From: Pseudomonas sp. PD9R
GTDB taxonomy: Bacteria; Pseudomonadota; Gammaproteobacteria; Pseudomonadales; Pseudomonadaceae
Direction of reading: 5' to 3'
NCBI RefSeq assembly: GCF_019200975.1
Contig: NZ_JAHTMR010000002.1
Location: 231,679-295,678 of the forward strand
DNA: 64,000 nt
Shown here: positions 1 through 13,930 of the stretch, one piece after another
Layout: every line of letters starts with the position of its first letter
How positions within the stretch are numbered: position 1 is the first letter of the stretch
Position numbers and translations under genes: made by a program
The notes under the pieces: generated by a model
What the model saw: only the letters and a program-made list of their open reading frames with translations
Told to the model about the DNA's origin: nothing
The model's database searches: none

Positions 1-1325
1 ATTCCGATCAACTGCGCCGCTGCGGCCTGCACACCATTGCTCTGGGCCAGGGCGGCCAGAATGTAGGCCTTCTCGACTTCCGCCAGCGCGGCTTCCAGAT
101 CCGGCGGCACGCTGCTGCCGTCGCTCAAGATCGCAGCACCGCTGGCCGGTGACGAAGCAAACAGATACGCCGGCAGATCATCGTCTTCAATCACCGCCCC
201 AGAGGCGACGATGGTTGCGCGCTCCACGCAGTTTTGCAGCTCGCGGATATTGCCCGGCCACGAATAATTGGCCATGGCCTGCAATGCCTCCGGGGTAAAG
301 CCGGTGATGCGCTTGCCCGCCGTGGCGCCCAGCGTGTGGGCGAAATGCCGGGCCAGCGGGGCGATGTCTTCGACGCGTTCGCGCAGGGCCGGCAGGGGAA
401 TCGGGAACACATTGAGGCGGTAATACAGGTCTTCGCGAAACTCTTTTTTGGCCACCGCGTCCAGCAGGTTTTTGTTGGTCGCCGCGATCACACGCACATC
501 GACCTTGCGCTCGCGCGGGTCGCCCACCGGTTCGATCACTCGCTCTTGCAAAGCCCGCAGGATTTTCGCCTGCAACGCCAACGGCATTTCGCCAATTTCA
601 TCGAGGAACAGGGTGCCCTTGTCGGCCTGCATGAAGCGCCCGACCCGATCCGCCACGGCCCCGGTGAAGGCACCTTTGCGATGGCCGAACATTTCGCTTT
701 CCAACAAACCTTCCGGGATCGCTGCGCAGTTCACTGCAACGAACGGTTTGTCGGCGCGATTGCCGTGTTTGTGGATCGCCCGGGCGACCATTTCCTTGCC
801 GGTGCCGCTTTCGCCGGTCAGCAGGATCGTCGCATTGCTTTCGCGCACCGAGTCGATGGCGTGCAGCACCCGGCGGAAGCTCGGGCTGTCACCGATCAGG
901 CTGTCGAACTGTTGGTGTTCGTCGAGTTCGGCGCGCATGCGCTGGTTATCTTTGAGGATGTCGCGAAATTGCAGGGCTTTGTTGACGGTGATGTCCAGTT
1001 CGTCGATGTCGAACGGTTTGGCGATGTAATCGAAGGCACCGTTGCGCATCGACTGCACGGCGTTTTTCACCGTGCTGTAGGCGGTCATGACGATCACTGG
1101 CAACTGCGGAAAACGGCTTTTGATTTCCGCCAGCAATTGCGGACCGTCCATGCCGGGCATGCGCCAGTCACTGATCACCAGGTCGATGTCTTCGACCTCC
1201 AGCACTTTGAGGGCATGCAGGCCATTGCCGGCGGTGAACACGGTGATGCCGTTCTGACTCAACGCCGAGGCCAGCAGGTCGCAGAGCTTGGGCTCGTCGT
1301 CGACCACCAGTACGTTATGTGTCAT
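1..1325 (-). CDS. Sigma-54-dependent response regulator, C-terminus cut by window edge
   Basis: This is an NtrC-type regulator that would activate sigma-54 promoters after phosphorylation by the kinase encoded just upstream. The first 441 residues are visible. They include a receiver domain with the acceptor Asp53 (ISDWRMPG), an AAA+ domain with Walker A GESGTGKE at about 171-178 and the sigma-54 contact loop GAFTGA at about 218-223, and the beginning of a Fis-type helix-turn-helix. The stop codon lies beyond base 1. The ATG overlaps the end of the kinase gene by 11 bases, so the two are translationally coupled. It resembles the MifR type of regulator, but that assignment is from memory and unverified. 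A sigma-54 promoter upstream of the nearby phosphatase operon is a likely target. Confidence 0.93.
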   Translation of the reverse strand, partial: MTHNVLVVDDEPKLCDLLASALSQNGITVFTAGNGLHALKVLEVEDIDLVISDWRMPGMDGPQLLAEIKSRFPQLPVIVMTAYSTVKNAVQSMRNGAFDYIAKPFDIDELDITVNKALQFRDILKDNQRMRAELDEHQQFDSLIGDSPSFRRVLHAIDSVRESNATILLTGESGTGKEMVARAIHKHGNRADKPFVAVNCAAIPEGLLESEMFGHRKGAFTGAVADRVGRFMQADKGTLFLDEIGEMPLALQAKILRALQERVIEPVGDPRERKVDVRVIAATNKNLLDAVAKKEFREDLYYRLNVFPIPLPALRERVEDIAPLARHFAHTLGATAGKRITGFTPEALQAMANYSWPGNIRELQNCVERATIVASGAVIEDDDLPAYLFASSPASGAAILSDGSSVPPDLEAALAEVEKAYILAALAQSNGVQAAAAQLIG

Positions 1326-3090
1326 CGCTGCCCTCGTCTAAGTCGTCGCCATTGGCCGGAATGTACAGGCTGAACGTGGCCCCGGCATCTTTTTCACTGG
1401 TGCACTCGATGCGCCCGTCATGACTTTCCATGATCGAGAATACCTTCGCCAGACCCAGGCCGGTGCCGGAGGCCTTGGTGGTGACGAATGGTGTGAAGAT
1501 CCGTTCAAGCATGTCCGGCTCAATGCCCTGGCCGGTATCGCCGATGCTGATCACCGTGTACGGCGCATCGCTGCTGATCGTCAGGGTCAGGCGGCCGCCG
1601 TCGGGCATGGCGTCGATGGCGTTGACGATCAGGTTCAACCCGGCCTGCTTGAGTTGCCGCGCATCGGCGTAAACGGTGGCGCCGGGGGCCTGATCGTCGA
1701 TGCGTACATCGATGTTATGGCTGGCCAGTTCCGGGGTGCAGAAACCGGCCAACTCATCCACCAGTTGCCGCACCGGTTGCGTCGAACGCATCGGCGCGCT
1801 GGGTTTGGCGAAGTCGAGAAAATCAGTGATCAGGTCGTTGATCCGGCTGACTTCGCTGACTACGTACTCCAGATGTCGCTTGTCGCTTTCCGGCAGGTCG
1901 GCGCGCCGATGCAGCAGTTGCGTGGCGGTTTTGATGATGCCCAGCGGGTTACGGATTTCATGGGCCAGGCCCATCGCGACTTCGCCCAGTGCATGCAAAC
2001 GGTCGCGGCGACGCAACTGCGATTCCAGGTTTTGCAATTCGCCGAGGCGTTCGCTCATGTGGTTGAACGTGCTGCTCAACTCGGCGAGTTCGTCACCGCC
2101 GCTCACCGGCAGGCGCTGGCGGTAATCGCCGGCGATCACCGCTTGCACGCCTTTGGACAGCCCGCGCAAAGGCTGGGTCAGGCGCTGCGACACCAACCAG
2201 CCGACCGTCAGGGACGCCGCCGAACTGAGCAGGAATATCAGGATGAACAGGTTGCTCTGGTTGACCAGGCCCAACAGGCTGCTGTGGCGCAGCAAGCCGC
2301 TGAAGATCACGCCTTGCAGCTCGCCGTTTTCATTGAGGATCGGTCGGTAGATGCCGCTGTAGCGGTTGGTGAATTGCTCGATCGGCTGCTTGGTGCTGCG
2401 CAGGATCTGTTCGATTTTTTCCGGTACGGCCGCCGGGTGATCTTCGAAACGCTGGGTGGAAAAAATCTCCGAGAAGTCATCGGCCTTGGCCAGGTACAGG
2501 CGCAGGTCCAGGGAATGCACGTCGGCCACGCTGGTGAGGAAACTGCTGTCTAGATAAGTGCCGATCACCAACTTGTATTCGACACCTTCCTGCTCGGTCT
2601 CAAAGGTCGAGACCACCGTGCCGGTCGGCACGCCGCCCACTTGCAGCGTTTGCAGGACGGCTTTGGGTGCGGTGCTGATCTGGCGCACGATGTCGTCGGC
2701 GGCCGTACTGAACAACACTTTGTGATCGCTGTTGCGCACCAGCGCTACCACGTCGATGCCCATGGAATCGGCGATGTCGGCGGTCAGCTTGTCGTTCTTG
2801 GTCGACAGTCGATCAGTGGGCGGGCGGGTGTATCGCAAAAACAACTGCGCGACGCGGGCGTTATCGCGCAGGATTTCGGTGATTTCGTCTTCAACGATCT
2901 TGGTCGATTCCTGCAGCCAGATGCGCACGTTGCTGTCGAAAATCTGCGACAGGGTGGTGGCGGCCAGCTCGGCGGCGATCATGGTCGGGATCACGCTGAC
3001 CAACCAGAACGCCAGCACCAGTTTGCGTTGCAGGCTCCAGCCGGAGAGGGCGAAAGGTCGGGCGTCGGGGCGTCGGTTTTTGATCATCAT
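1315..3090 (-). CDS. Membrane sensor histidine kinase (HAMP, HisKA, HATPase)
   Basis: This is the partner kinase of the adjacent sigma-54 regulator, 591 residues from the chosen ATG. Visible parts are membrane segment 1 (about 24-48), a periplasmic sensor region of roughly 230 residues (Cache-like by layout), membrane segment 2 (about 278-302), HAMP, the phosphoacceptor His377 in HEIRNPLG, and an ATPase domain with N, G1 (GDTGQGIE) and G2 (GTGLGL) boxes. An upstream start at 3222 is open but would run 132 bases into the preceding gene. The ATG at 3090 overlaps that gene's stop as ATGA, which favours coupled translation. The ligand cannot be read from sequence. The MifS type is possible but unproven. 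Confidence 0.92.
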   Translation of the reverse strand: MMIKNRRPDARPFALSGWSLQRKLVLAFWLVSVIPTMIAAELAATTLSQIFDSNVRIWLQESTKIVEDEITEILRDNARVAQLFLRYTRPPTDRLSTKNDKLTADIADSMGIDVVALVRNSDHKVLFSTAADDIVRQISTAPKAVLQTLQVGGVPTGTVVSTFETEQEGVEYKLVIGTYLDSSFLTSVADVHSLDLRLYLAKADDFSEIFSTQRFEDHPAAVPEKIEQILRSTKQPIEQFTNRYSGIYRPILNENGELQGVIFSGLLRHSSLLGLVNQSNLFILIFLLSSAASLTVGWLVSQRLTQPLRGLSKGVQAVIAGDYRQRLPVSGGDELAELSSTFNHMSERLGELQNLESQLRRRDRLHALGEVAMGLAHEIRNPLGIIKTATQLLHRRADLPESDKRHLEYVVSEVSRINDLITDFLDFAKPSAPMRSTQPVRQLVDELAGFCTPELASHNIDVRIDDQAPGATVYADARQLKQAGLNLIVNAIDAMPDGGRLTLTISSDAPYTVISIGDTGQGIEPDMLERIFTPFVTTKASGTGLGLAKVFSIMESHDGRIECTSEKDAGATFSLYIPANGDDLDEGSDDT

Positions 3091-4211
3091 GCTTCGCTTA
3101 TTGCAGCAGCCATGGCAGGGTCGGATCGGTCCGGGCGAATAAACATTTTCACCAGTCGCAACAGACCGTCGAGCAGGCGGTTGCGATGGCGGAAAAACAC
3201 GGTGTTGCCGATGAACGAGCAACCCAGCCGCAGCTTACTGGCATAGCCGGCCTGGCCGCACGCATAGATCGTAAGGCCGTGCTCAATACAGTAGTCGACA
3301 TTGGCCAGCCAGCTGCGCACGTACAGGTTGTGCTCGCGGGTTTTGCTCAGGTCGTGGGCGAAAAACTTGTCCACCAGTCGCTGCTCGTCCAGCAGCACCA
3401 GATTGAACGCCACCAGTTCCTCGCCGAGCCAATAGAGCACGCAAGCGGAACGCTCATCGAGGTGCTCCAGCACTTGGCGGAAATAGGCGGGCGGCAAGCG
3501 TTCGAACGTCAGCTCGCTGCGCTCCAGTGTGGCTTCGTAGAGTTGCATCATGGTTGGCAGCAGATCGTCTACCGTGTTCCGCCACTCGACGCGTGGACCC
3601 TGGCCGCGCAGCGTGCGACGCAGGTCTTTGCGGGTGGATTTGCCCAGGCTTCCCAGGTAGGCATCCACCGAGCCAAACGTGATCGGCAGTTCGGCGCTGG
3701 GCAGGCCGGGCATGCTTTGCAGGCCGGCGTCCCGGCAGGCCTTCAACCACTGCGGGTCTCGATGCGAGGCGTCCTTGACTGCGAGCAGACCGATCCCGGC
3801 CTGATCCGCATCGTTGCGTGCCAGGATCAACAATTGCTCAAGCAAATCCACACGTTGGTCCGGCGCTATATGTCGGGCCGTACCGACATGGCACTGCTCG
3901 GCCACCGGTGAGCCGAGGGCGTAGAGGCGGATTTCAAGCAATCCCGGCCTCCAGCGGCGCAAGCGTGCGGCGATGCGCTTGCCTGGGCCCTGAACTGTGG
4001 TGTCCAGCGAATACACCGTGGTAAACGCCACGGCTGCCGCCATCAATACGTCGTCTTCAAACAGCGCCAGATAACGCCACTGAAAGTCGGCAATGTTCGC
4101 CCGTTCAACAGCGCGGTAGTAATCCCAATTCTCCAGGTCTTCGGGGAAGCAATCGTTCCAGGCCTCGCGGTCAATGGCCTCGATGGTGGAAAAGGCAAGG
4201 GCGGTGATCAC
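3087..4211 (-). CDS. Predicted N-acyltransferase (FemAB/GNAT-like, COG3146-type)
   Basis: This 374-residue protein has no signal peptide or membrane segment. The overall layout is that of the double-GNAT-fold or FemAB-like predicted N-acyltransferases, with a C-terminal region rich in conserved-looking Tyr, Cys and Gly (ACGQAGYASKLRLG) typical of that family. The expected role is acyl transfer to an amino group, and the substrate is unknown. The start is GTG at 4209-4211, preceded by AAGGAAA at good spacing; the overlapping ATG is followed at once by TGA and cannot be used. Its stop overlaps the kinase ATG. It is separated from the upstream hydrolase by 140 bases that carry a REP pair, so it may be a second transcription unit. 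Confidence 0.8.
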   Translation of the reverse strand: MITALAFSTIEAIDREAWNDCFPEDLENWDYYRAVERANIADFQWRYLALFEDDVLMAAAVAFTTVYSLDTTVQGPGKRIAARLRRWRPGLLEIRLYALGSPVAEQCHVGTARHIAPDQRVDLLEQLLILARNDADQAGIGLLAVKDASHRDPQWLKACRDAGLQSMPGLPSAELPITFGSVDAYLGSLGKSTRKDLRRTLRGQGPRVEWRNTVDDLLPTMMQLYEATLERSELTFERLPPAYFRQVLEHLDERSACVLYWLGEELVAFNLVLLDEQRLVDKFFAHDLSKTREHNLYVRSWLANVDYCIEHGLTIYACGQAGYASKLRLGCSFIGNTVFFRHRNRLLDGLLRLVKMFIRPDRSDPAMAAAISEA

Positions 4212-4245
4212 ATCGTTTCCTTCAACTTTTTACGCATTCACCCAT

Positions 4246-4335
4246 CCCTGTAGGAGCTGCCGAAGGCTGCGATCTTTTGATCTTGATCTTCAAAAAACAG
4301 ATCAAAAGATCGCAGCTGCGGCAGCTCCTACAGGG
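4246..4335. repeat. REP pair, family 1 (facing arms)
   Basis: The left arm TGTAGGAGCTGCCGAAGGCT continues into GCGATCTTTTGATC, and a reverse-complement arm ends in GGCAGCTCCTACAGGG. The two copies face each other around a short AT-rich centre, as in REPIN-type doublets. The pair lies between the hydrolase and N-acyltransferase genes and could act as an RNA stabilising hairpin or a partial terminator. Confidence 0.9.
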
Positions 4336-4351
4336 TTTGTGCGAGGTAGTG

Positions 4352-5242
4352 TCAGGCCAGTTGCCGATAGTCCTGGCGCATGGGTTGTGGGGTGATGCCT
4401 TGTTGCATGAAACGGTGCTGGATAAAGTCCGCGCTCAGCTCCACCACGCGGCGGTATTGCAGGTCGACGGTGATCATGTGATAGCAATCATCGAGCAGGA
4501 TTTTCACCACCGGCCCGCCGAGTTTGCGTTCGACATAGTCGGCGTTCCAACGGCTGGTGATGTCGTCCTCTCGCGAATGCAGGACCAGCGCCTGGGTGGT
4601 AATTTCGGGCATGCGTTTCTTCACCGCCGCCACCAGTCGATGCAACTCCCGAACGCTGACCCCGGACATGGTCAACAGCCCGGCATTGCTGCTTTCGCCG
4701 GCCCTCATCTGGCGCTCGACAATCGCCCGCAAGCGTTCGTCCTTGATGCCGAAGGGTGATTTTTCGTTGAAGCGGCACAGGTGCACGCCAAACGGAATCG
4801 CCATCAGCAGTGGAGTGAGCACGGCGACTTTGGGCATGTTCCAGCCGTCATAGCGCAGGGTCGTCGAGTACAGCAACAGGCCCTCGATCTGCCCCGGATG
4901 CTCGGCCGCCAGGTACATCGACAGCACCGCGCCCATGGACAAGCCGCCGACAAACACATGCTCGTGTTTCCTGCGCACACCGACGAAGGTGTTGCGCGCG
5001 CTCTCGTACCAGTCGCGCCAGCCAGTGGCTTGCAGGTCGGCGTTGTCGCCACAGTGGCCGGCGAGGGTCGGCACATAGACGGTGCAACCCGCCGCAGCCA
5101 GGCCCATCGCTACCCGGCGCAGTTCCGTCGGGGTGCCGGTGAGGCCGTGGATCAACAACACCGCGACCTCGCCGCTGCCGAGAATGAATCCGGCCGTGCC
5201 TTCGCCCATGTCGATGGCATCGAACTCGACGGCGGCGTTCAT
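4352..5242 (-). CDS. Alpha/beta hydrolase (carboxylesterase / monoacylglycerol lipase type)
   Basis: This is a 296-residue cytosolic serine hydrolase. The visible motifs are the oxyanion-hole HGLTG near residue 32, the nucleophile elbow GGLSMG with Ser102, an acid in HSREDD (Asp226 or 227), and His255 in CYHMIT, together a full catalytic triad. Its ATG overlaps the aminotransferase stop as ATGA, so it is the third gene of a coupled trio with the HAD phosphatase and the aminotransferase. The family includes Est30-like esterases (COG1647), and the substrate is not predictable. A role as ester, thioester or amide hydrolase in the pathway is inferred from context only. Confidence 0.88.
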   Translation of the reverse strand: MNAAVEFDAIDMGEGTAGFILGSGEVAVLLIHGLTGTPTELRRVAMGLAAAGCTVYVPTLAGHCGDNADLQATGWRDWYESARNTFVGVRRKHEHVFVGGLSMGAVLSMYLAAEHPGQIEGLLLYSTTLRYDGWNMPKVAVLTPLLMAIPFGVHLCRFNEKSPFGIKDERLRAIVERQMRAGESSNAGLLTMSGVSVRELHRLVAAVKKRMPEITTQALVLHSREDDITSRWNADYVERKLGGPVVKILLDDCYHMITVDLQYRRVVELSADFIQHRFMQQGITPQPMRQDYRQLA

Positions 5243-6633
5243 CGTTTCATCGCTCGGTGCAGCAAGCGATCGAGCAGGGCGATGCCGAGGTCGATTTCCG
5301 GGTAGCTGATTTCCAGCGACGGTGCCAGGGTGATGACGTTTTTGTAGTAACCACCCACATCGAGGATCAGGCCCAGGCGTTTGCCGTCGATTTCGATGTC
5401 GCCCTTCATGCCTTCTTCGACCATGAAGTCCAGGGTCGCCTTGTCCGGCGTGAAACCGTCAGGACCACAGATTTCGCAACGCAGGGCCAGGCCCAGACCG
5501 TCGACATCGCCGATGATCGGGTAGCGTTTCTGCAGGTCTTTCAGGCCTTCGAGGAAGTACTTGCCCTTGTTCATGACCATCGCGCCGTAATCGACTTCGC
5601 TGGTCATCTTGAACATCTCCAGACCTACCGCCGTGCCCAGTGGGTTGGAGGCGAAGGTCGAGTGGGTGGAACCTGGCGGGAAGATTTTCGGGTTGATCAA
5701 CTCTTCCTTGGCCCAGATGCCGCCCAGCGGATTGAGGCCGTTGGTCAGCGCCTTGCCAAACACGATCACGTCCGGTTTGACGTCGAAGTGTTCGATCGAC
5801 CACAACTTGCCGGTGCGATAGAAGCCCATCTGGATTTCATCGACCACCATCAAAATGCCGTGCTGATCCAGCACATGCTTGAGTTCGCTGTAGAAATTCA
5901 TCGGCGGAATCACGTAGCCGCCGGTGCCCTGGATCGGCTCGACGTAGAACGCGGCGTATTCGCTCTGGCCGACTTTCGGGTCCCAGACGCCGTTGTATTC
6001 GGTCTCGAACAGCCGGGCGAATTGCTGCACGCAGTGACTGCCGTACTCTTCTTTGCTCATGCCTTTCGGGCCACGGAAGTGGTACGGGAACGGGATGAAA
6101 TTGGCGCGCTCGCCGAAGTGGCCGTAGCGGCGGCGATAGCGGTAGCTGGAAGTGATCGACGAGGCACCGAGGGTTCGGCCGTGGTAACCGCCTTCGAAGG
6201 CGAACATCAGGCTTTTACCGTTGCTGGCGTTGCGCACGACTTTCAGCGAGTCCTCGATGGACTGCGAACCACCGACGTTGAAATGCACCCGACCGTCGAG
6301 GCCGAATTTTTTCTTCGCGTCCACGGCGATCATCTCCGAGAGCTCGATCTTGCCTTTGTGCAGGTACTGGCTGGCGATCTGCGGCAGGGTATCGATCTGC
6401 TGTTTCAGCGCGTTGTTCAGGCGTGGGTTGGCGTAACCGAAGTTGACCGCCGAGTACCACATCTGCAGGTCGAGGTAGGCCTGGTCTTCGGTGTCCCAGA
6501 CGTAGGAACCTTCACAGCGGCTGAAAATACGCGGCGGTTCGATGTAGTGAACGGTGTCGCCGTAGGAACAGTACTTGGCTTCCTTTTCCAGCAGGATTTG
6601 GTCTTCGGCGGTAGCGATTCGAATATCAGACAT
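5239..6633 (-). CDS. Class III PLP-dependent aminotransferase
   Basis: This is a 464-residue fold-type I class III transaminase. The PLP lysine is Lys294 in FGKALTNG, with the upstream cofactor Asp in VVDEIQMG and a Gly-rich AFEGGYHGRT segment. Class III enzymes move amino groups between omega-amines or amino acids and a keto acid. The longer open frame to 6840 lies inside the phosphatase gene, so the ATG at 6633 was chosen; it overlaps the phosphatase end by 8 bases and has AGGAAC upstream. The neighbouring phosphatase and hydrolase suggest a biosynthetic or modifying pathway rather than plain ornithine or GABA catabolism. The substrate is unknown. Confidence 0.9.
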   Translation of the reverse strand: MSDIRIATAEDQILLEKEAKYCSYGDTVHYIEPPRIFSRCEGSYVWDTEDQAYLDLQMWYSAVNFGYANPRLNNALKQQIDTLPQIASQYLHKGKIELSEMIAVDAKKKFGLDGRVHFNVGGSQSIEDSLKVVRNASNGKSLMFAFEGGYHGRTLGASSITSSYRYRRRYGHFGERANFIPFPYHFRGPKGMSKEEYGSHCVQQFARLFETEYNGVWDPKVGQSEYAAFYVEPIQGTGGYVIPPMNFYSELKHVLDQHGILMVVDEIQMGFYRTGKLWSIEHFDVKPDVIVFGKALTNGLNPLGGIWAKEELINPKIFPPGSTHSTFASNPLGTAVGLEMFKMTSEVDYGAMVMNKGKYFLEGLKDLQKRYPIIGDVDGLGLALRCEICGPDGFTPDKATLDFMVEEGMKGDIEIDGKRLGLILDVGGYYKNVITLAPSLEISYPEIDLGIALLDRLLHRAMKR

Positions 6634-7324
6634 GGTGGAAAAGTTCCTGTGTTTCTGTGTTGAAAGAGGTGGCGTTGGCGGCGCTGGCGTTGGGCAGTTG
6701 GGCCAACAGGGCAGGGAGTTCGGCGAAGCTGTCGAAGCGCGCGTAGGGGATACTGTTGCGCTCGCAGTGTTCGGCCAGGCGATCTTTGGCAAACACGAAA
6801 TCAGCGGTGCTGGCCACGCACATGTCGGACTGGCCGTCACCGATCACCAGCACCCGTTTGGCTTTAGGCGTGGACTTGCATTTGCAGTTGCCGGCGGCGG
6901 CACGGCAGGCGTCGCTGGCGTGCGGGAAGTCGATGCGCCAGCTATCGTGATCGACCTGGCGCAAGCGATTGGCGAGGATCGGCAGGAGGCTGACGTAATT
7001 GCGTGCCAGGATCCGGGCGATGCCTTGTTCGATGCCATCGCTGACCACTTCCAGGGACGCACCGAGGCCGATGACGTGGTCGACGAAGTCGGGGAAGTCC
7101 GGGTCGATTTCAATGCTGTCGAAGAACCCGAGCAATTCGCTCGGCGTGGCCTTGACCAGTGACAGTTGGCGGCTGAGGCATTCACGGGAACCGATATCGC
7201 CCGCCAGCCATTCTTCTTCGACCGCTTCCCAGCTCGGGTCGGCGAATCGTTGGAGGATGCTGTCGATCACGTCGGTGCGGGTGATGGTCCCGTCGAAATC
7301 ACACACGATATGCCAGTCAATCAT
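6626..7324 (-). CDS. HAD-IB phosphatase, MtnX-like
   Basis: This 232-residue protein carries the HAD motif I as CDFDGTIT with nucleophile Asp9 and acid Asp11, a motif II region LEVVSDG, and motif IV as GDGQSDMC. A C1-type insert with CKCKS is present. The family (MtnX/SerB-like HAD-IB) removes phosphate from small molecules. No methionine-salvage genes are nearby, so a role in methionine salvage is not supported. It is the first gene of the leftward phosphatase-aminotransferase-hydrolase operon, whose sigma-54 promoter lies about 50-70 bases upstream of its ATG. Confidence 0.88.
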   Translation of the reverse strand: MIDWHIVCDFDGTITRTDVIDSILQRFADPSWEAVEEEWLAGDIGSRECLSRQLSLVKATPSELLGFFDSIEIDPDFPDFVDHVIGLGASLEVVSDGIEQGIARILARNYVSLLPILANRLRQVDHDSWRIDFPHASDACRAAAGNCKCKSTPKAKRVLVIGDGQSDMCVASTADFVFAKDRLAEHCERNSIPYARFDSFAELPALLAQLPNASAANATSFNTETQELFHHV

Positions 7325-7375
7325 CTGTTTTACCTATTGGGTGTTTCGCGCTGTCTGCGCTTGCCAAGGGGGTAG

Positions 7376-7391
7376 AGCAGGGACTGTGCCA
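7376..7391 (-). promoter_or_regulatory. Sigma-54 (-24/-12) promoter of the phosphatase-aminotransferase operon
   Basis: On the minus strand this reads TGGCACAGTCCCTGCT. The invariant GG and GC are exactly ten bases apart, and TGGCAC matches the -24 consensus in full. Transcription would start about 12 bases further on, giving a leader of roughly 40 bases before the ATG at 7324. The gene for a sigma-54 activator lies in the same cluster. Confidence 0.75.
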
Positions 7392-7446
7392 ATCGTGTTC
7401 GGCCCAGCGGGGCTGGGGTTCTGACCGGGAACGGAGTAGGGCGAAG

Positions 7447-7472
7447 CTACAATTTTTGTAGGTCGCTACAAA
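7447..7472. promoter_or_regulatory. Palindromic enhancer-like site (CTACAA / TTGTAG half-sites)
   Basis: Three half-sites sit in tandem as CTACAA, TTGTAG and CTACAA. They form two overlapping palindromes, 7447-7461 with a 3-base centre and 7455-7472 (TTTGTAG, GTCG, CTACAAA). The site is 56-81 bases upstream of the -24 element of the leftward sigma-54 promoter, the usual place for an NtrC-type activator. The divergent gene at 7545 could also be affected. Binding by the adjacent response regulator is inferred. Confidence 0.6.
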
Positions 7473-7544
7473 CAACATGAGTGCTTGCGTGGCGGGGGCA
7501 ATCCGGGGATTGATGCGCGCATGTCCCGTTCAAGGAATCACCTC

Positions 7545-8306
7545 ATGTCGAGGATTACTGTGGCGCTGTTCGCAGCGCTGACCTGCCTTTCAATCAACGC
7601 ACATGCCGATGGCATCACCGGTGAAGCCGGTCTTGGCCTGAGCTACCAACCTCATGACCCGACCGGTAGTCGTTACGAAAACCGGGCCGTGCCGTACCTG
7701 GATCTGGATTGGGGCGATGTCAGCCTGAGCACCGATGACGGGTTGACCTGGGATGCGCTCAAGGCCAACGGTTTCAGCGCCGGGCCGTTTGTGAATTACT
7801 TGTCCGGGCGGACCGCCAACGGCAATTTGCGTGGATTGCGCGATGTGCCGGACATGGCCGAGGTGGGCGGGTTTGTGCAATACGCCCCGGCCGATTTCTG
7901 GCGGGTGTTTGCGTCGCTTGGCCAGGCGGTCGGCGGAGGTGGCGGACAGGGTGGCGTGTTGGGGCGGGTGGGTGGCGAGGTCGGTTATCCAGTCGGCGGC
8001 GGGGTGATCGGCAGTACTAATCTGACGGCCCACTTCGCCGATGCCCGGCAAACGCAGACTTACTTCGGCGTCAGTGCCGAGCAATCACAGGCCTCTGGAA
8101 TTCGCCCGTACAACGCTGGCGGTGGGTTGCAGAACGTCGCGCTGACCCAGAGCTTCGAGTTTCCCCTGGCTCTGCACTGGTCGTTGCTGACCAGCGCGAG
8201 CTGGATTCACCTGACGGGGTCGGCGGCGGACAGCAGCATCGTCAAAGAAGTCGGGCGTGCCGATCAGGGTGAAGCGCAGGTGGCAATTGCCTATAAATTC
8301 AATTGA
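7545..8306 (+). CDS. MipA/OmpV family outer membrane protein
   Basis: This 253-residue exported protein starts at the ATG preceded by AAGGAA. An N-terminal signal peptide ends in NAHA. The mature part has alternating beta-strand character, many Gly and aromatic residues, and a C-terminal strand ending in YKFN, as in MipA/OmpV-type porin-like beta-barrels. Family members are linked to murein-enzyme scaffolding or small-molecule uptake, and neither role is shown here. An in-frame extension to 7485 is open but lacks a good ribosome site. It is transcribed divergently from the phosphatase operon. Confidence 0.82.
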   Translation: MSRITVALFAALTCLSINAHADGITGEAGLGLSYQPHDPTGSRYENRAVPYLDLDWGDVSLSTDDGLTWDALKANGFSAGPFVNYLSGRTANGNLRGLRDVPDMAEVGGFVQYAPADFWRVFASLGQAVGGGGGQGGVLGRVGGEVGYPVGGGVIGSTNLTAHFADARQTQTYFGVSAEQSQASGIRPYNAGGGLQNVALTQSFEFPLALHWSLLTSASWIHLTGSAADSSIVKEVGRADQGEAQVAIAYKFN

Positions 8307-8410: not shown

Positions 8411-8809
8411 TCAGGTTTCTTCACCCTCGGCCAGCAACGCAATCCCGCCCATGATCACCGCCACGCCCAGCCAGTGCAGCACACTGATCTGCTCGCCCAA
8501 TCCCAGCCACGACCCCAGCAACACGCCAACAAACACCAGCGAACTCAAGGGAAACGCCAGGGACAAACTGCTGCGCCGCAAAATCAGCATCCACACAAAA
8601 AACGCGCCGATGTAACAGACAATCGCCAGCCAAACCCCCGGACTGATCGCAACCGCCTGCAGCCATTGCAGGCTGAAATCCATCTGCCCCAGTTGATCGC
8701 CACCCACTTTGGTAGCGATCTGCCCGGCGCTTTCGAAGGCGATCAACAGCGCCCAAAGAACAACGGTGCCAAGGCGTTCATGCAGCCAGTCGGTTTTGCG
8801 ACTGATCAT
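8411..8809 (-). CDS. Small four-helix DMT/EamA-like membrane protein, second of a pair
   Basis: About 132 residues with four predicted membrane segments, the size of an SMR or half-EamA unit. The ATG at 8809 was chosen because GAAGG stands seven bases before it; earlier GTG and ATG codons at 8836 and 8827 overlap the previous gene. It lies next to a similar protein at 8820-9194, an arrangement typical of heterodimeric small transporters such as the ArnE/ArnF type. The substrate is unknown, and the operon partner is an arginase-fold protein. Confidence 0.8.
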   Translation of the reverse strand: MISRKTDWLHERLGTVVLWALLIAFESAGQIATKVGGDQLGQMDFSLQWLQAVAISPGVWLAIVCYIGAFFVWMLILRRSSLSLAFPLSSLVFVGVLLGSWLGLGEQISVLHWLGVAVIMGGIALLAEGEET

Positions 8810-8819
8810 CGATTGGCCT

Positions 8820-9194
8820 TCATGCATGGGTGACACACACGAGCATCACGCCCGCCGTAATCACCAGCGTACCGAGCCAGCGCCGGCGGCTGACGGTTTC
8901 GCCAAGCACCATTTTGCCCGCCAGCACCACGCCGCAATAAGCCAGTGCCGCCGCCGGAAACAACAGGCTCAGCGGTGCGCGGGACAGGGCTTCGAGCCAG
9001 ACGAAAAATTCGACCACGTAGGCTCCGATCCCGCACCACAGCAGCGGCGCGTTGAACACCTGGCCCCAGAACGCATTCAGGCGAAAGCCGCCTTCGAGCT
9101 CCGGCAAACGGTCCAGGCCGAGCTTGAAACAGAGCTGGCCGATGACGTCCAGCACAATGGAAAACGCCACCAGCACGATCACAGTGAAGGTCAT
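8820..9194 (-). CDS. Small four-helix DMT/EamA-like membrane protein, first of a pair
   Basis: This 124-residue protein has four predicted membrane helices, begins with a hydrophobic segment, and has a GLDRLPE stretch in the first loop. Its ATG overlaps the stop of the arginase-like gene as ATGA. With the following small membrane protein it probably forms a two-subunit transporter or flippase. The pairing is inferred from size, order and similarity of layout. Confidence 0.8.
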   Translation of the reverse strand: MTFTVIVLVAFSIVLDVIGQLCFKLGLDRLPELEGGFRLNAFWGQVFNAPLLWCGIGAYVVEFFVWLEALSRAPLSLLFPAAALAYCGVVLAGKMVLGETVSRRRWLGTLVITAGVMLVCVTHA

Positions 9195-10111
9195 GGGAAC
9201 AGCTCCTCGAACAGCTCGATCAGCGCCTGATTGGTCGTGGCATTGCGCAACAGATCGGCTTCACTCCAGCGTTCGGCAGGAGGTTGATCAGATTGGGCTT
9301 CCCAGCGTTTGAAGGCGTTGCTGAAGGCCGGTCGGGCGTATTCGCCGCAGATGTCGATGCCGAGAATGCGTTTGCCCGCCGCCAAGGCGCGGATCGCCTG
9401 CAACAGATGACTGAGGCGCATGCCGCCCTGGTCCCAATTGGTTGCGGCGTCTTCACTGGCCAGCACGTCCTTGTCGATGGTGATCCACACCGCTTCGGTG
9501 GGCAGGCTGGCGACCAGTTGCTGGAGAAACTGCGCCCAGTCCAGGCCCGCCAGATTGCGCCAGTGCAGCAGGTTTTCCTGCTGTCGATGCCCGGCACCAT
9601 CCCCGACCATGCCCCAGATTTTCGACGGCGGACGCTGCCAGGGAAACATCTCCAATACGCCGCGTTTGAGCGCGCGCAGGTTGCCGCCCTTGAACTGCGG
9701 GTTTTGCAGGTCGTCGCTGCACGGGCCGAGCGTGACGATGCGCCGGATGTTCGGCAGTTTCAGTGCCTGATTGACCCACGAACCGCAATGCCGGCGTGGG
9801 GCGAACCGAACCCAGTCGGGGTGATTGTCGAAGTGGATCAGGCTTGCCGGCTCCGGCAGGTCGCTCAGAAACGCCGGGGTCAAATGGTGGTAGTCGCCAG
9901 AACCGACGAAGAAGATTTCTGGCTGCGGGCCGTCGTGTCGGGGCCGACGATGCAGGCGTTCGGTAAAGCGGCGCCAGGTGCGTTCGCTCGACCACAATCG
10001 GAGTTTCGGGCCGAGGTCGAGCAGGTCAAGGCGTTTGGCGCGGCCACTGGCAAGCAGCTGCGCGATGGGCGCCTGGGCAGTCAGGCTGTGGTCGAGATCT
10101 AAAATGTTCAA
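9191..10111 (-). CDS. Arginase-fold (ureohydrolase-like) protein
   Basis: This 306-residue cytosolic protein has the three spaced metal-ligand motifs of the arginase/deacetylase fold in divergent form: GSGDYHHL near residue 71 (compare GGDHS), HFDNHPDW near 93 (compare DAHxD), and TIDKDVL in the C-terminal half (compare DxDxxDP). The canonical guanidino-recognition signatures are absent, so arginase or agmatinase activity should not be assumed. The start is TTG at 10109-10111, since an in-frame TGA stands four codons upstream and no ATG is near. It leads a coupled operon with two small membrane proteins. Confidence 0.78.
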   Translation of the reverse strand: MNILDLDHSLTAQAPIAQLLASGRAKRLDLLDLGPKLRLWSSERTWRRFTERLHRRPRHDGPQPEIFFVGSGDYHHLTPAFLSDLPEPASLIHFDNHPDWVRFAPRRHCGSWVNQALKLPNIRRIVTLGPCSDDLQNPQFKGGNLRALKRGVLEMFPWQRPPSKIWGMVGDGAGHRQQENLLHWRNLAGLDWAQFLQQLVASLPTEAVWITIDKDVLASEDAATNWDQGGMRLSHLLQAIRALAAGKRILGIDICGEYARPAFSNAFKRWEAQSDQPPAERWSEADLLRNATTNQALIELFEELFP

Positions 10112-10250
10112 GGTCGCAATTCACCCTTGGCAGACCCTTCCAGACACCGGCTTCATCCATCATGAAGACCGGCCGGGGGGCTTTAGGGGGTAAATGCAAG
10201 GGGCGGGCCACCGCAAAAGAGATCGGCGTCTGCGGCAGGTGTTGCGCGCA

Positions 10251-10365: not shown

Positions 10366-10704
10366 TCAGGTGTGGAAACGGAGCCAGACGCTGACGAGCA
10401 CCGTCGCCGCCAGCAGCCATGCCACCGCGGCTACGGCGAGAGATGCCTCCAGTCGCATCCGGTCGACCATTACGTATAAGGTCGCCAGGTAGACGAAGTA
10501 CGGAATGATCGACCACATGCCGAACGCAATGGTGGTCTTCAAGTCGTCGACCGAACGGCCTTTGCCGACGATGTAGTGGGCAATCAGTGCAAAGGTCGGA
10601 AACAGTGGCACCAGACCCGCGATGTAATAGTTTCTGGTCTTGGCCAGGGCGGCGAGAATTAGCACCACCGCCGCGCCCAAGGTTGCTTTGAGAATCAGAT
10701 CCAT
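10366..10704 (-). CDS. glpM: GlpM family inner membrane protein
   Basis: This 112-residue protein has about four hydrophobic segments and the conserved-looking stretches ALAKTRNYYIAGLVPLFPTF and GMWSIIPYFVYL of the GlpM family. GlpM was described in Pseudomonas aeruginosa as a small membrane protein affecting alginate production from glycerol. Its ATG overlaps the aauR stop as TGATG, so it is read from the aauSR transcript. Its link to acidic amino acid sensing is unexplained. Confidence 0.8.
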   Translation of the reverse strand: MDLILKATLGAAVVLILAALAKTRNYYIAGLVPLFPTFALIAHYIVGKGRSVDDLKTTIAFGMWSIIPYFVYLATLYVMVDRMRLEASLAVAAVAWLLAATVLVSVWLRFHT

Positions 10705-12032
10705 CAGTGGCTCAGCCCGTACTTCTTCACTTTGTCGAACAAGGTGGTTTTGGCCATGCCCAGTTCCTGGCTGGCCTGGGTCAGGTTGCCGCCGCTGCGC
10801 TGCAAGGCATCGCCGAGCAAGTTGCGTTCGAAGGCTTCTACCGCTTCGGCGAATGCCAGGCCTTGCGTGTTGCCACTGGCACCGGGTTTCTTGAACGCCG
10901 GCAGGCCGAGGGCAAAGCGCTCGGCGACGTTGCGCAGTTCGCGCACGTTACCCGGCCAGTCGTGGCTCATCAGGGTCGACAGGGTCTGGTTATCCAGTTC
11001 CGGCGCGGCACGGTCAAAGCGCAGGGAGGACTGCTGCAAAAAGTGTTCGAACAGTTGCAGGATGTCTTCGCGACGCTCGCGCAGTGGCGGCAATTCCAGG
11101 GTGACCACGTTGAGGCGGTAATACAGGTCGCTGCGGAATTCGCCGGCCTTGCTCGATTCGTCGAGGTCGGACTTGGTCGCGGCGATCACCCGGCAATCCA
11201 CCGCCACGCTCTGGTTTGAGCCAAGGCGTTCGAGGGTGCGCTCCTGTAACACCCGCAGCAGTTTGATCTGCAACGGCAGGGGCATGCTTTCCACTTCGTC
11301 GAGGAACAGCGTGCCATTGTCGGCGTGCTCGATCTTGCCGATCCGCCGCTTACCGGCGCCGGTGAAAGCGTTGGCTTCGTGGCCGAAGATCTCACTTTCG
11401 AACAGGTTTTCCGGGAGACCGCCGCAGTTCAACGCCACGAATTGTTTGCTGTGTCGGCGACTGAAGTCATGCAGGCAGCGGGCAACCAGTTCCTTGCCGG
11501 TGCCGGTTTCGCCTTCGATCAGCACGTTGGCCGAAGTATCGGCGACGTTGGCGATCAGTTCGCGCAGGTTTTGCATGGCTGGCGAGCGGCCGATAATCCG
11601 CCCTTCGAGGGAGTCACGTTCGGCCATTTGCCGACGTAGTGACGAGACTTCCCGTGCCAGGCTGCGTTGCTCCAAAGCACGACGGGCGACATCCACCAGA
11701 CGTTCCGGGGAGAAGGGTTTTTCCATGAAATCGTAGGCGCCTTTCTGCATCGCGCCGACCGCCATGGAGATGTCGCCATGGCCGGTAATCAGCACCACCG
11801 GCAGGCTGCGGTCACGGGCCTTGAGCCGATTCAGCAGTTCCAGGCCATCGATGCCCGGCAGGCGAATGTCGCTGATGACGATGCCGGCAAAGTTGTCGCC
11901 GACGCGCTCGAGGGCTTCTTCGGCGCTGCCTACGCCGATGCAGGGAATGTCCTCCAGAGTCAGCGCCTGCTGGCAGCCGAGCAACACATGGGGGTCGTCT
12001 TCGACAATCAACACACTAAGGTCGTTGTTCAT
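10704..12032 (-). CDS. aauR: Sigma-54 response regulator AauR
   Basis: This 442-residue NtrC/DctD-type activator has a receiver with Asp55 (ISDIRLPG), an AAA+ domain with Walker A GETGTGKE, and a C-terminal Fis-type helix-turn-helix (NLTQASQELGMAKTTLFDKV). In Pseudomonas putida AauR switches on acidic amino acid uptake with sigma-54. The assignment rests on gene order (aauR, aauS, aatP, aatM, aatQ, aatJ) and on the sigma-54 promoter of aatJ in this window. The sigma-54 contact loop reads NAFTGA instead of GAFTGA, with Asn221. The start overlaps the aauS stop by four bases. Confidence 0.92.
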   Translation of the reverse strand: MNNDLSVLIVEDDPHVLLGCQQALTLEDIPCIGVGSAEEALERVGDNFAGIVISDIRLPGIDGLELLNRLKARDRSLPVVLITGHGDISMAVGAMQKGAYDFMEKPFSPERLVDVARRALEQRSLAREVSSLRRQMAERDSLEGRIIGRSPAMQNLRELIANVADTSANVLIEGETGTGKELVARCLHDFSRRHSKQFVALNCGGLPENLFESEIFGHEANAFTGAGKRRIGKIEHADNGTLFLDEVESMPLPLQIKLLRVLQERTLERLGSNQSVAVDCRVIAATKSDLDESSKAGEFRSDLYYRLNVVTLELPPLRERREDILQLFEHFLQQSSLRFDRAAPELDNQTLSTLMSHDWPGNVRELRNVAERFALGLPAFKKPGASGNTQGLAFAEAVEAFERNLLGDALQRSGGNLTQASQELGMAKTTLFDKVKKYGLSH

Positions 12033-13930
12033 ATTGGCTCGGCGGAAGTGGGGCTTACCAACGGTAAACTGAGGACGAAAGTGGTACCACCGCTGGCCGG
12101 GTGTTCAACACCCAGGTGACCGCCGGTGGCAGCGGCCAGGCTGGCGGAAAGGGTCAGGCCAAGGCCAAGGCCTTGTTCGCCGGGTTTGGTGGTGAAGAAG
12201 GGTTCGAACAAATGCTTGCGTGCTTCGGCATCGATGCCGTGGCCGTTGTCCCGTACGCGCAGTCGGTATTTGCCATCGAACACTTCACCTTCGAGCCACA
12301 GTTCCGGCTGCGGTTGCGCCTGCATGGCATCGAGGGCGTTGCCGATCAGGTTGACCAGGATCTGCTCCAGACGGGTCTGGTCGATCCGCACCTGAACATC
12401 GTCGAAATTGCGGTGAAGTTGCAGCGTCGCATTGGCCAGCCGCCCATCGAGTAACTGCAAGGCTGCGTCGACGCCCTTGCCAAGGCAGGCCTGGCCCTTG
12501 TCATCACCGCGCCGGGCGAAGGAGCGCAGGCTGGCGGTGATTCGGCCCATGCGGTCGATCAATTCGTTGATGGTCTTGAGGTTGGTGCTGGCCACGTCCA
12601 GTTGCCCGCGCTCCAGAAAGCGCACGGTGTTGCCGGACAAGGTACGCAGCGCCGCCAGTGGCTGGTTCAATTCGTGGGCGATGCTGGTGGACATCTGCCC
12701 GATGGCGGCGAGTTTTCCAGCCTGCACCAGTTCATCCTGAGCGCGGCGCAAGGTCTCTTCGGCATGCCGTCGTTCGCGAATCTGACCCTTGAGCCGTTCG
12801 TTGCTGGCGCGCAGGTCGACGGTGCGTTCGGTAATCCGACGCTCCAGTTGATTGTTGGCTTCCTGCAGGGCTTCGCGGGCCGCGAGGCGGGTTGCGATCA
12901 CCTTGCGCCGCTCGTTCCAGGCAATCAGCAGGAACGCCACCAAGGCAAACGCAACCGCCACCAGCATGCCTTGATTGATCGCTTCACGACGCAAATCCTG
13001 GAGTGGCGTGAGCAGGGTGAAGTTCCACGGTGTATCGCTCAAGGGGCGGGTCTGCGCCAGGTAGCTGATGTTTTCTTCGTCTGAGGACAATTCGCTGTTG
13101 GCCGGGAAGGTGAGTTTTTCCACGCCTTCGGACAGGGTTTCCCGGCCCAGCGGTTGCAACTCGTTCAGCGGGAACCAGTAGTACTGCAGGCTGCGGGCCA
13201 GTTTTTCCTTGGTCTCGTCGCTCAAAGGTACGACCGACTTGAGCCGCCGCGCCGGGTCACTGGAGAGAATGATGATGCCGTTCTCGTCGCTGACGAACGC
13301 TTCCAGGCGCGCCCGTTGCCAGCGTTCTTCCATGGCTTCCAGGCGTACCTTGACCACCGCGACGCCAATGATTTTGCCGTGTTCTTCCAGGCCGTGGGCC
13401 AGGTAGTAACCGGGTTCGCCGTTGGTGCTGCCGATGCCGTAGAAACGTCCTGGCTGGCCACGTACAGCGCTTTGGAAATAGGCGCGGAAGGACAGGTCTT
13501 CACCGAGGTAGCTGTCGACATCGCGCCAGTTGCTGGTGGCCATCACGCGACCGGTGGTGTCCATGACGTAGATGGCCCGACTGCGGCTGCGCCGGTTCAG
13601 GCCTTCAAGGTAATCGTTGACCGTTTGCCGGTGTTCCGGGGTCGGGTCGGCCAGCAACTGCGGGACACTGGTTTCGAGTTCGAGCAGGCTGGGGAGGTAG
13701 GTGTATTTGCTGATTTCGCTTTCGACGGCGCGGGCGTGCAATTCCAGCTGGCGCTGGCCGTTTTCGCTGAGGCTGCGGATGCCGTAGTGCTCACTGACCC
13801 AGAAGCCGACATAACCCAGACCGATCATCAGCGCGATGATCAGCGGCGGCAGGAACAGATGGCGAATCAGACGGGGTTTCACGGCGAGTGATGGCGGCGC
13901 TGCGCGATAGAGATTGGGGTCGCATTTCAT
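12029..13930 (-). CDS. aauS: Sensor histidine kinase AauS
   Basis: This kinase of about 633 residues is of the DctB type. A membrane segment near residues 25-45 is followed by a large periplasmic double-Cache-like sensor, a second membrane segment (VAVAFALVAFLLIAW), a coiled coil, the His box ELNQPLAALR with HEL, and an ATPase domain with GHGID and GLGLGL. It would sense glutamate or aspartate and phosphorylate AauR. A GTG at 13933 directly precedes the ATG at 13930 and either could start translation. No strong ribosome site is seen. Confidence 0.9.
   Translation of the reverse strand: MKCDPNLYRAAPPSLAVKPRLIRHLFLPPLIIALMIGLGYVGFWVSEHYGIRSLSENGQRQLELHARAVESEISKYTYLPSLLELETSVPQLLADPTPEHRQTVNDYLEGLNRRSRSRAIYVMDTTGRVMATSNWRDVDSYLGEDLSFRAYFQSAVRGQPGRFYGIGSTNGEPGYYLAHGLEEHGKIIGVAVVKVRLEAMEERWQRARLEAFVSDENGIIILSSDPARRLKSVVPLSDETKEKLARSLQYYWFPLNELQPLGRETLSEGVEKLTFPANSELSSDEENISYLAQTRPLSDTPWNFTLLTPLQDLRREAINQGMLVAVAFALVAFLLIAWNERRKVIATRLAAREALQEANNQLERRITERTVDLRASNERLKGQIRERRHAEETLRRAQDELVQAGKLAAIGQMSTSIAHELNQPLAALRTLSGNTVRFLERGQLDVASTNLKTINELIDRMGRITASLRSFARRGDDKGQACLGKGVDAALQLLDGRLANATLQLHRNFDDVQVRIDQTRLEQILVNLIGNALDAMQAQPQPELWLEGEVFDGKYRLRVRDNGHGIDAEARKHLFEPFFTTKPGEQGLGLGLTLSASLAAATGGHLGVEHPASGGTTFVLSLPLVSPTSAEPI

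What the first reader, a model, noticed from the sequence alone, without database searches (positions are those of the whole stretch)
1..7472. Possible undescribed sigma-54 two-component gene cluster around a phosphatase-aminotransferase-hydrolase trio
Seen: six leftward genes in order (HAD-IB phosphatase, class III aminotransferase, alpha/beta hydrolase, N-acyltransferase, sensor kinase, sigma-54 regulator), five of six junctions close or overlapping. Known: these enzyme families dephosphorylate, transaminate, hydrolyse and acylate small molecules. Inference: they form one pathway making or modifying an amino-containing metabolite, controlled by the attached two-component system. I do not recognise this set as a described pathway.
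Basis: partly seen in the sequence, partly recalled or inferred. Interest (0 to 1): 0.75.

Follow-up and report, generated by a model that had tools for sequence, protein, structure and literature searches.

The report
Undescribed sigma-54-controlled amino-metabolite export cluster
A set of about nine genes that occurs together in many bacteria, with a conserved switch-like sequence in front of its enzymes, is predicted to make and export an unknown amino-containing, likely membrane-linked compound under the control of its own sensor.

Summary
The six leftward genes are real and form a unit, but the finding sees only part of it. In 149 genomes of the genus, aminotransferase (AMT) and kinase (HK) occur in the same 46 (AMT frame broken in one); the acyltransferase-like gene (GNAT) occurs only in these, and an arginase-fold gene (ARG, 9191-10111) only where GNAT does. 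ARG and two ArnE/ArnF-like small membrane proteins form a second operon beyond divergent mipA. Both operons have conserved sigma-54-type sites (up to two mismatches: 83 of 84 loci before HAD, 47 of 47 before ARG). A TTGTAG/CTACAA enhancer-like array precedes HAD, once in the genome. The only locus lacking site and array is a trio copy without kinase and regulator. Related sets occur in alpha- and gammaproteobacteria; those with an NtrC-type regulator carry the site (5 of 5), those with an OmpR-type regulator do not (0 of 8). Fatty-acid genes join the cluster in several lineages; GNAT models as a FemX/MprF-like fold. Most likely it builds and exports an amino-containing, probably lipid-linked envelope compound. 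Product and substrates are unknown. Ten searches of open-licence papers showed no title or abstract describing it.

The parts
6626..7324 (-). HAD: MtnX-like HAD-IB phosphatase, 232 aa; DxD and GDGxSD motifs present
   Evidence: (DKMTPPase-SF 85.5 bits, cut-off 81.55)
5239..6633 (-). AMT: class III PLP enzyme, 464 aa (ATG at 6633); K293/D264 present; Thr434 (463-residue query numbering) where three of four aligned solved class III chains have Arg
4352..5242 (-). ABH: alpha/beta hydrolase, monoacylglycerol-lipase/carboxylesterase-like, with Ser/Asp/His motifs
3087..4211 (-). GNAT: tandem-GNAT acyltransferase-like protein, FemX/MprF-like fold
1315..3087 (-). HK: sensor kinase, two predicted transmembrane regions with about 225 residues between them, HAMP, HisKA, HATPase
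1..1325 (-). RR: NtrC-type response regulator (receiver, sigma-54 AAA+, Fis HTH), cut by the window edge
7377..7391 (-). sigma-54-type -24/-12 site TGGCACAGTCCCTGC before HAD
   Evidence: 83 of 84 loci with at most 2 mismatches, 81 with 1
7447..7471 (-). enhancer-like array TTGTAG-N4-CTACAA-N3-TTGTAG
   Evidence: both dyads with at most 1 mismatch in 84 of 85 promoters; once in the genome at up to 3 mismatches
7485..8306 (+). MipA/OmpV-family gene, divergent; beside the set in 67 of 68 loci
8411..8836 (-). SMR1: EamA-type protein with four predicted TM regions, ArnE/ArnF-like
8820..9194 (-). SMR2: EamA-type protein with four predicted TM regions, ArnF/ArnE-like
9191..10111 (-). ARG: arginase-fold hydrolase with six metal-ligand positions kept
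10196..10210 (-). second sigma-54-type site TGGCCCGCCCCTTGC before ARG
   Evidence: (47 of 47 loci with at most 2 mismatches, 46 with 1)

Best explanation
The six genes belong to a larger conserved set (HAD-AMT-ABH-GNAT-HK-RR plus ARG-SMR2-SMR1) with conserved sigma-54-type sites ahead of both operons, and the set likely makes and exports an amino-containing, probably lipid-linked envelope compound, likely under the control of its own two-component system. Shown by sequence: the gene set, its co-occurrence, the two sites and the enhancer-like array ahead of HAD. Inferred: the kinase senses an envelope signal through its periplasmic domain; the phosphorylated regulator binds the TTGTAG/CTACAA array and drives HAD-AMT-ABH-GNAT-HK-RR by sigma-54, in a positive loop. 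Inferred chemistry: AMT puts an amino group on (or moves one within) a keto or aldehyde precursor, HAD removes a phosphate, ABH hydrolyses an ester or thioester; these three are the core that makes the base compound. GNAT, a FemX/MprF-like transferase, adds an acyl or aminoacyl group to the amine; ARG, found in the genus only where GNAT is present, trims that product; the SMR1/SMR2 pair flips it outward, as ArnE/ArnF does for an aminoarabinose lipid.
Against: No substrate, product, transcript or phenotype is known. SMR1 and SMR2 score far below the ArnE/ArnF cut-offs and no glycosyltransferase is in the set. Lipid-tail genes sit in only part of the lineages (not in L090, L094, L099, L100, L128, L130, L131, L137 among others). 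A GNAT fold match shows neither tRNA use nor lipid substrates. The second promoter lacks the array, so its activator is unknown. GNAT is missing from 16 of 76, ARG from 25 of 68 and the SMR pair from 10 of 68 assessable loci, so they are add-ons.
Confidence: 0.55

Rival explanations
1. A soluble secondary metabolite (antibiotic or signal) is made by the same enzymes and pumped out; it is not lipid-linked.
For: Patchy distribution, 45 of 149 genomes in the genus and 25 of 398 in the phylum, and residence on plasmids fit a secondary metabolite. Efflux genes (MacB, HlyD, TolC types) lie beside some clusters. Sbb17/Sba18, solved with streptothrisamine, are among the best fold matches.
Against: ACP/ketoacyl synthase, desaturase and cyclopropane synthase join the cluster in several lineages; the EamA-type pair looks like ArnE/F; AMT stays 90-99% identical to the window's in the genus sample, unusual for a diversifying metabolite.
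Confidence: 0.28
2. A catabolic or detoxification operon: the kinase senses an amine or a phosphorylated amine, and HAD, AMT and ABH break it down.
For: Sigma-54 two-component control is common for catabolic operons (recalled); the best-scoring NCBIfam models for RR are AtoC and NtrC; a solo trio copy lies beside genes that read like phosphonate-use genes in L080 (names recalled).
Against: No oxidoreductase was recognised in the set; an acyl/aminoacyl transferase-like protein and, in some lineages, fatty-acid synthesis genes co-occur instead.
Confidence: 0.12
3. Unrelated genes that happen to be neighbours in one Pseudomonas lineage.
For: GNAT and the ARG/SMR operon are missing in some relatives.
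Against: Same genome sets for AMT and HK, shared plasmid records for ARG and GNAT, same gene order in alphaproteobacteria.
Confidence: 0.02

Closest known systems
MprF aminoacyl-phospholipid synthase/flippase, with A-PGH hydrolase (partner recalled)
   Different: Transferase and flippase candidates are separate genes; 11-14% identity; extra AMT, HAD and ARG; tRNA use untested.
FemABX and Sbb17/Sba18 aminoacyl-tRNA-dependent transferases
   Different: 7-18% identity; substrate and donor unknown; no significant sequence hit in the PDB.
ArnBCADTEF lipid A aminoarabinose system
   Same: Aminotransferase plus an ArnE/ArnF-like pair plus two-component control (Arn facts recalled).
   Different: SMRs below Arn cut-offs; no sugar or glycosyltransferase genes in the set; class III aminotransferase in Pseudomonas (DegT genes join only in some other lineages).
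MtnX (methionine salvage phosphatase)
   Same: HAD belongs to the MtnX-like HAD-IB subfamily.
   Different: 99.5 bits against an equivalog cut-off of 303.2; no salvage genes in the set.
Agmatinase/arginase ureohydrolases
   Same: Fold and six metal-ligand positions.
   Different: The position aligned with the arginase glutamate that holds the guanidinium (recalled) is not conserved.

Membership tests
Sigma-54-dependent two-component regulon | Regulator has receiver, sigma-54 AAA+ and Fis HTH domains | tested here: met
   orthologues in 5 other loci
Sigma-54-dependent two-component regulon | -24/-12 site and upstream dyad before the first operon, conserved | tested here: met
   site 83 of 84, array 84 of 85
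Sigma-54-dependent two-component regulon | The same before the second operon (ARG) | tested here: inconclusive
   site 47 of 47, but no array
Sigma-54-dependent two-component regulon | Transcription depends on regulator and RpoN | not testable with these tools
   needs mutants
MtnX equivalog | Score above the TIGR03333 cut-off | tested here: not met
   99.5 against 303.2 bits
MtnX-like HAD-IB subfamily (TIGR01489) | Score above cut-off; catalytic motifs | tested here: met
   85.5 against 81.55 bits; motifs
Named class III aminotransferases (NCBIfam) | Score above a curated cut-off, among the 25 of 69 models shown | tested here: not met
   best 271.5 against 552 bits
Amino-acid-using class III enzymes | C-terminal Arg of the NV(I/L)R motif (alpha-carboxylate role recalled) | tested here: not met
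   Thr in 144 of 144 AMT sequences; Arg in 7vno, 9wqz and 9wrf but not in 6io1
FemABX/MprF transferases | Tandem-GNAT fold | tested here: met
FemABX/MprF transferases | Aminoacyl-tRNA as donor | not testable with these tools
   needs enzyme assay
Arginase/ureohydrolase | Pfam arginase above cut-off; six metal ligands | tested here: met
   30.3 against 22 bits; H75 D95 H97 D99 D213 D215 invariant in 10 of 10 and 36 of 36
Arginase/ureohydrolase | Guanidinium-binding Glu (recalled) | tested here: not met
   aligned position not conserved
ArnE/ArnF flippase | Score above NCBIfam equivalog cut-offs | tested here: not met
   SMR1 39.9 against 92 (ArnE), SMR2 52.1 against 99 (ArnF) bits
Known or candidate anti-phage defence (PADLOC) | Any model match at E 0.001 | tested here: not met
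   0 of 5 proteins (HAD, AMT, ABH, GNAT, ARG)

The most novel reading that the evidence does not exclude
The cluster is a modular counterpart of MprF/Arn: it makes a new class of amino-lipid whose amine is decorated from aminoacyl-tRNA by a FemX/MprF-like enzyme, finished by a new arginase-fold hydrolase subfamily and flipped by an ArnE/F-like pair, and it has spread on plasmids and chromosomes across alpha- and gammaproteobacteria with interchangeable NtrC- and OmpR-type control.
Probability: 0.25. Interest if true: 0.85.

Novelty: new variant of a known kind. Interest (0 to 1): 0.62.

Why it matters
It joins several families of unknown role (an AMT clade mostly 63-99% identical to the window's across proteobacteria, one outlier at 55%), an arginase-like subfamily, a FemAB-like subfamily and a pair of small EamA proteins into one testable pathway present in about 30% of sampled genomes of the genus and on rhizobial, agrobacterial, Bartonella and Roseomonas plasmids. 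The regulator, its operator and the promoters are now predicted, so induction, product and function can be tested directly.

Tried and rejected
Considered and dropped: serinol-type head group (DHAP amination plus dephosphorylation), only a guess, no call supports it; arginyl transfer followed by arginase trimming to ornithine, weakened because the guanidinium-binding Glu position is not conserved; anti-phage defence (no match); MtnX methionine salvage. The GNAT profile against PDB sequences gave only chance hits. The plain sigma-54 pattern over the window is not enriched (81 matches, 100 expected), so only position and conservation count. Before other genes, sites with two mismatches occur in 5 of 83 (MipA), 12 of 65 (GNAT), 1 of 80 (HK), 0 of 64 (SMR1) and 5 of 84 (ABH) loci, none with one. 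No array before ARG. My gene finder failed on several high-GC loci, so genes there were called by tblastn only. Rows left out of the NtrC/OmpR count: L129 (contig ends, 2 mismatches), L136 (regulator 34% and apart, 2 mismatches), L091, L127, L134, L135, L138, L140, L141 (no regulator seen), and L093, L132, L133, L139 (no HAD). L101, counted as OmpR, has a 2-mismatch site at -206. One search had 84 loci (L010-L089, L142-L145); L010-L089 were the best 80 of 566 AMT hits, so not a random sample; one search is the even sample. SMR2-first operons: 12 of 15 at one mismatch or fewer, 14 of 15 at two. Of the 20 phylum hits outside the genus I fetched 15, plus G116. Paper searches: no listed title or abstract describes the set; I opened passages of PMC2922099 and the abstract and outline of PMC11980842, no other paper.

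Full report
What is there. The window begins inside a Pseudomonas genome of 6.88 Mb (genus from the near-identical named relatives). Six minus-strand genes read, in order of transcription, HAD (MtnX-like HAD-IB phosphatase), AMT (class III PLP enzyme), ABH (alpha/beta hydrolase), GNAT (FemAB-like acyltransferase), HK (HAMP sensor kinase) and RR (NtrC-type regulator). There are five junctions: four overlap, and one is a 140-bp gap that holds a REP-like repeat (4246-4335) with many copies in the genome. RR runs 66 bases beyond the window edge. Past the divergent MipA/OmpV gene lies a second leftward operon, ARG-SMR2-SMR1 (an arginase-fold protein and two EamA proteins with four predicted TM regions each).

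Is it a unit? In 80 Pseudomonas loci fetched by AMT, of which 76 reach far enough, HK and RR are present in 75, ABH in 76, GNAT in 60. Of 68 that reach far enough the other way, HAD is in 68, MipA in 67, the SMR pair in 58, ARG in 43. These were the best AMT hits, so I also took an even sample of 149 genomes of the genus: AMT in 45, HK in 46, the same genomes except G749, whose AMT is present in two frame pieces. GNAT is in 37, all within this set; ARG in 28, all within the GNAT set. So AMT and HK go together and ARG is nested in GNAT. HAD and ABH were not searched in this sample.

How wide is it? Among 72,556 plasmid records ARG is in 47 and GNAT in 47, with 46 shared; AMT is in 34, all of them among the ARG records (many of these records are near-copies). 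Of the 13 ARG records without AMT (11 Roseomonas, 1 Aureimonas, 1 Azospirillum) I looked at one Roseomonas and the Aureimonas: a glutamate-1-semialdehyde-aminomutase-like class III gene stands beside the cluster. In Rhizobium, Agrobacterium, Sinorhizobium and Phyllobacterium records HAD, AMT, ARG, SMR, ABH, GNAT and SMR run in one direction, some with a desaturase between. In Bartonella the set is split over two places about 40 kb apart on one plasmid. In the phylum sample AMT (E at most 1e-150) is in 25 of 398 genomes and 12 of 212 genera; in the class sample in 3 of 229. Of 16 fetched loci outside the genus (L126-L141), HAD was found in 13 and ABH in 14; some misses are contig ends, but L139 (AMT 55% identical) has no partner at all. 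The named records with the set are alpha- and gammaproteobacteria; AMT alone is also named in Oxalobacter and Uliginosibacterium.

Regulation. A site TGGCACAGTCCCTGC (one mismatch to the -24/-12 pattern, which is recalled) lies at 7377-7391, 53-67 bases before HAD. A site with at most two mismatches lies 64-87 bases before HAD (extrapolated starts) in 83 of 84 loci, 81 of them with one, against 2.4% of mononucleotide shuffles; the regions before MipA, GNAT, HK, SMR1 and ABH have none at one mismatch and 0-12 at two. The one locus without it is L080, a second trio copy in P. libanensis that has no HK or RR. A second site lies before ARG (47 of 47 loci, 46 with one mismatch, shuffles 6.6%) or before SMR2 when ARG is missing (12 of 15 at one mismatch or fewer). 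Upstream of HAD lies TTGTAG-N4-CTACAA-N3-TTGTAG (7447-7471); each of its two overlapping dyads is present with at most one mismatch in 84 of 85 promoters including the window's, L080 again being the exception. It is an island: 15-mers in it recur (up to two mismatches) in 74-82 of 84 loci, those between it and the sigma-54 site in 0-39. In the whole genome it occurs once, even with three mismatches allowed; the outer dyad alone has one other exact and one near copy. The ARG promoter lacks it, so its activator is open. In other lineages, clusters with an NtrC-type regulator (L094, L099, L126, L128, L137) have a site with at most one mismatch 48-59 bases before HAD, 5 of 5; clusters with an OmpR-type regulator (L090, L092, L095, L100, L101, L102, L130, L131) have none, 0 of 8 (types by Pfam for all five NtrC types and for L090, L095, L101, L130, L131, the other three by annotation). 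L094 and L128 also carry the dyad CTACAA-N3-TTGTAG and L099 and L137 the variant CTCCAA-N3-TTGGAG or a near form; in L126 I saw none (read by eye). This independent repeat makes control by the attached system very likely; it remains unproved.

Limits. There are no expression, metabolite or mutant data. I did not examine the window beyond about 12 kb. The literature searches cover open-licence PMC papers only. The names aauSR, phnW and phnX for neighbours are recalled from reading translations; GlpM is by Pfam.

Noticed in passing
window 4246-4335; L009 about 6254-6602: REP-like repeat in the ABH-GNAT gap with dozens of copies genome-wide; copies also lie just past the regulator's end, where an 80-bp, 98% identical duplicate of window 1-80 occurs at G000:C23:231426-231505.
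   Followed up: no
L080 7229-10258: Second, solo HAD-AMT-ABH copy in P. libanensis without kinase, regulator, sigma-54 site or array, beside genes that read like phosphonate-use transaminase and hydrolase (names recalled).
   Followed up: partly
L152 (G749) 11285-12678: The only sampled genus genome with HK and GNAT but no whole AMT match has AMT in two frame pieces.
   Followed up: partly
window 10366-12032: The second operon abuts glpM and another NtrC-type regulator/kinase pair (aauSR-like, recalled); in several relatives the cluster lies between this and a DsbA-like gene.
   Followed up: partly
L139 9412-10791: A 55% identical AMT stands alone, without any partner gene seen.
   Followed up: no
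L137 4546-5187: An MlaC-family (phospholipid transport) gene lies next to the regulator of this lineage's cluster.
   Followed up: no
window 7475-7489: The conserved block before HAD extends beyond the dyad array towards mipA (GCAAGCACTCATGTTG; its 15-mers in 81-82 of 84 loci); role unknown, perhaps the mipA promoter.
   Followed up: no
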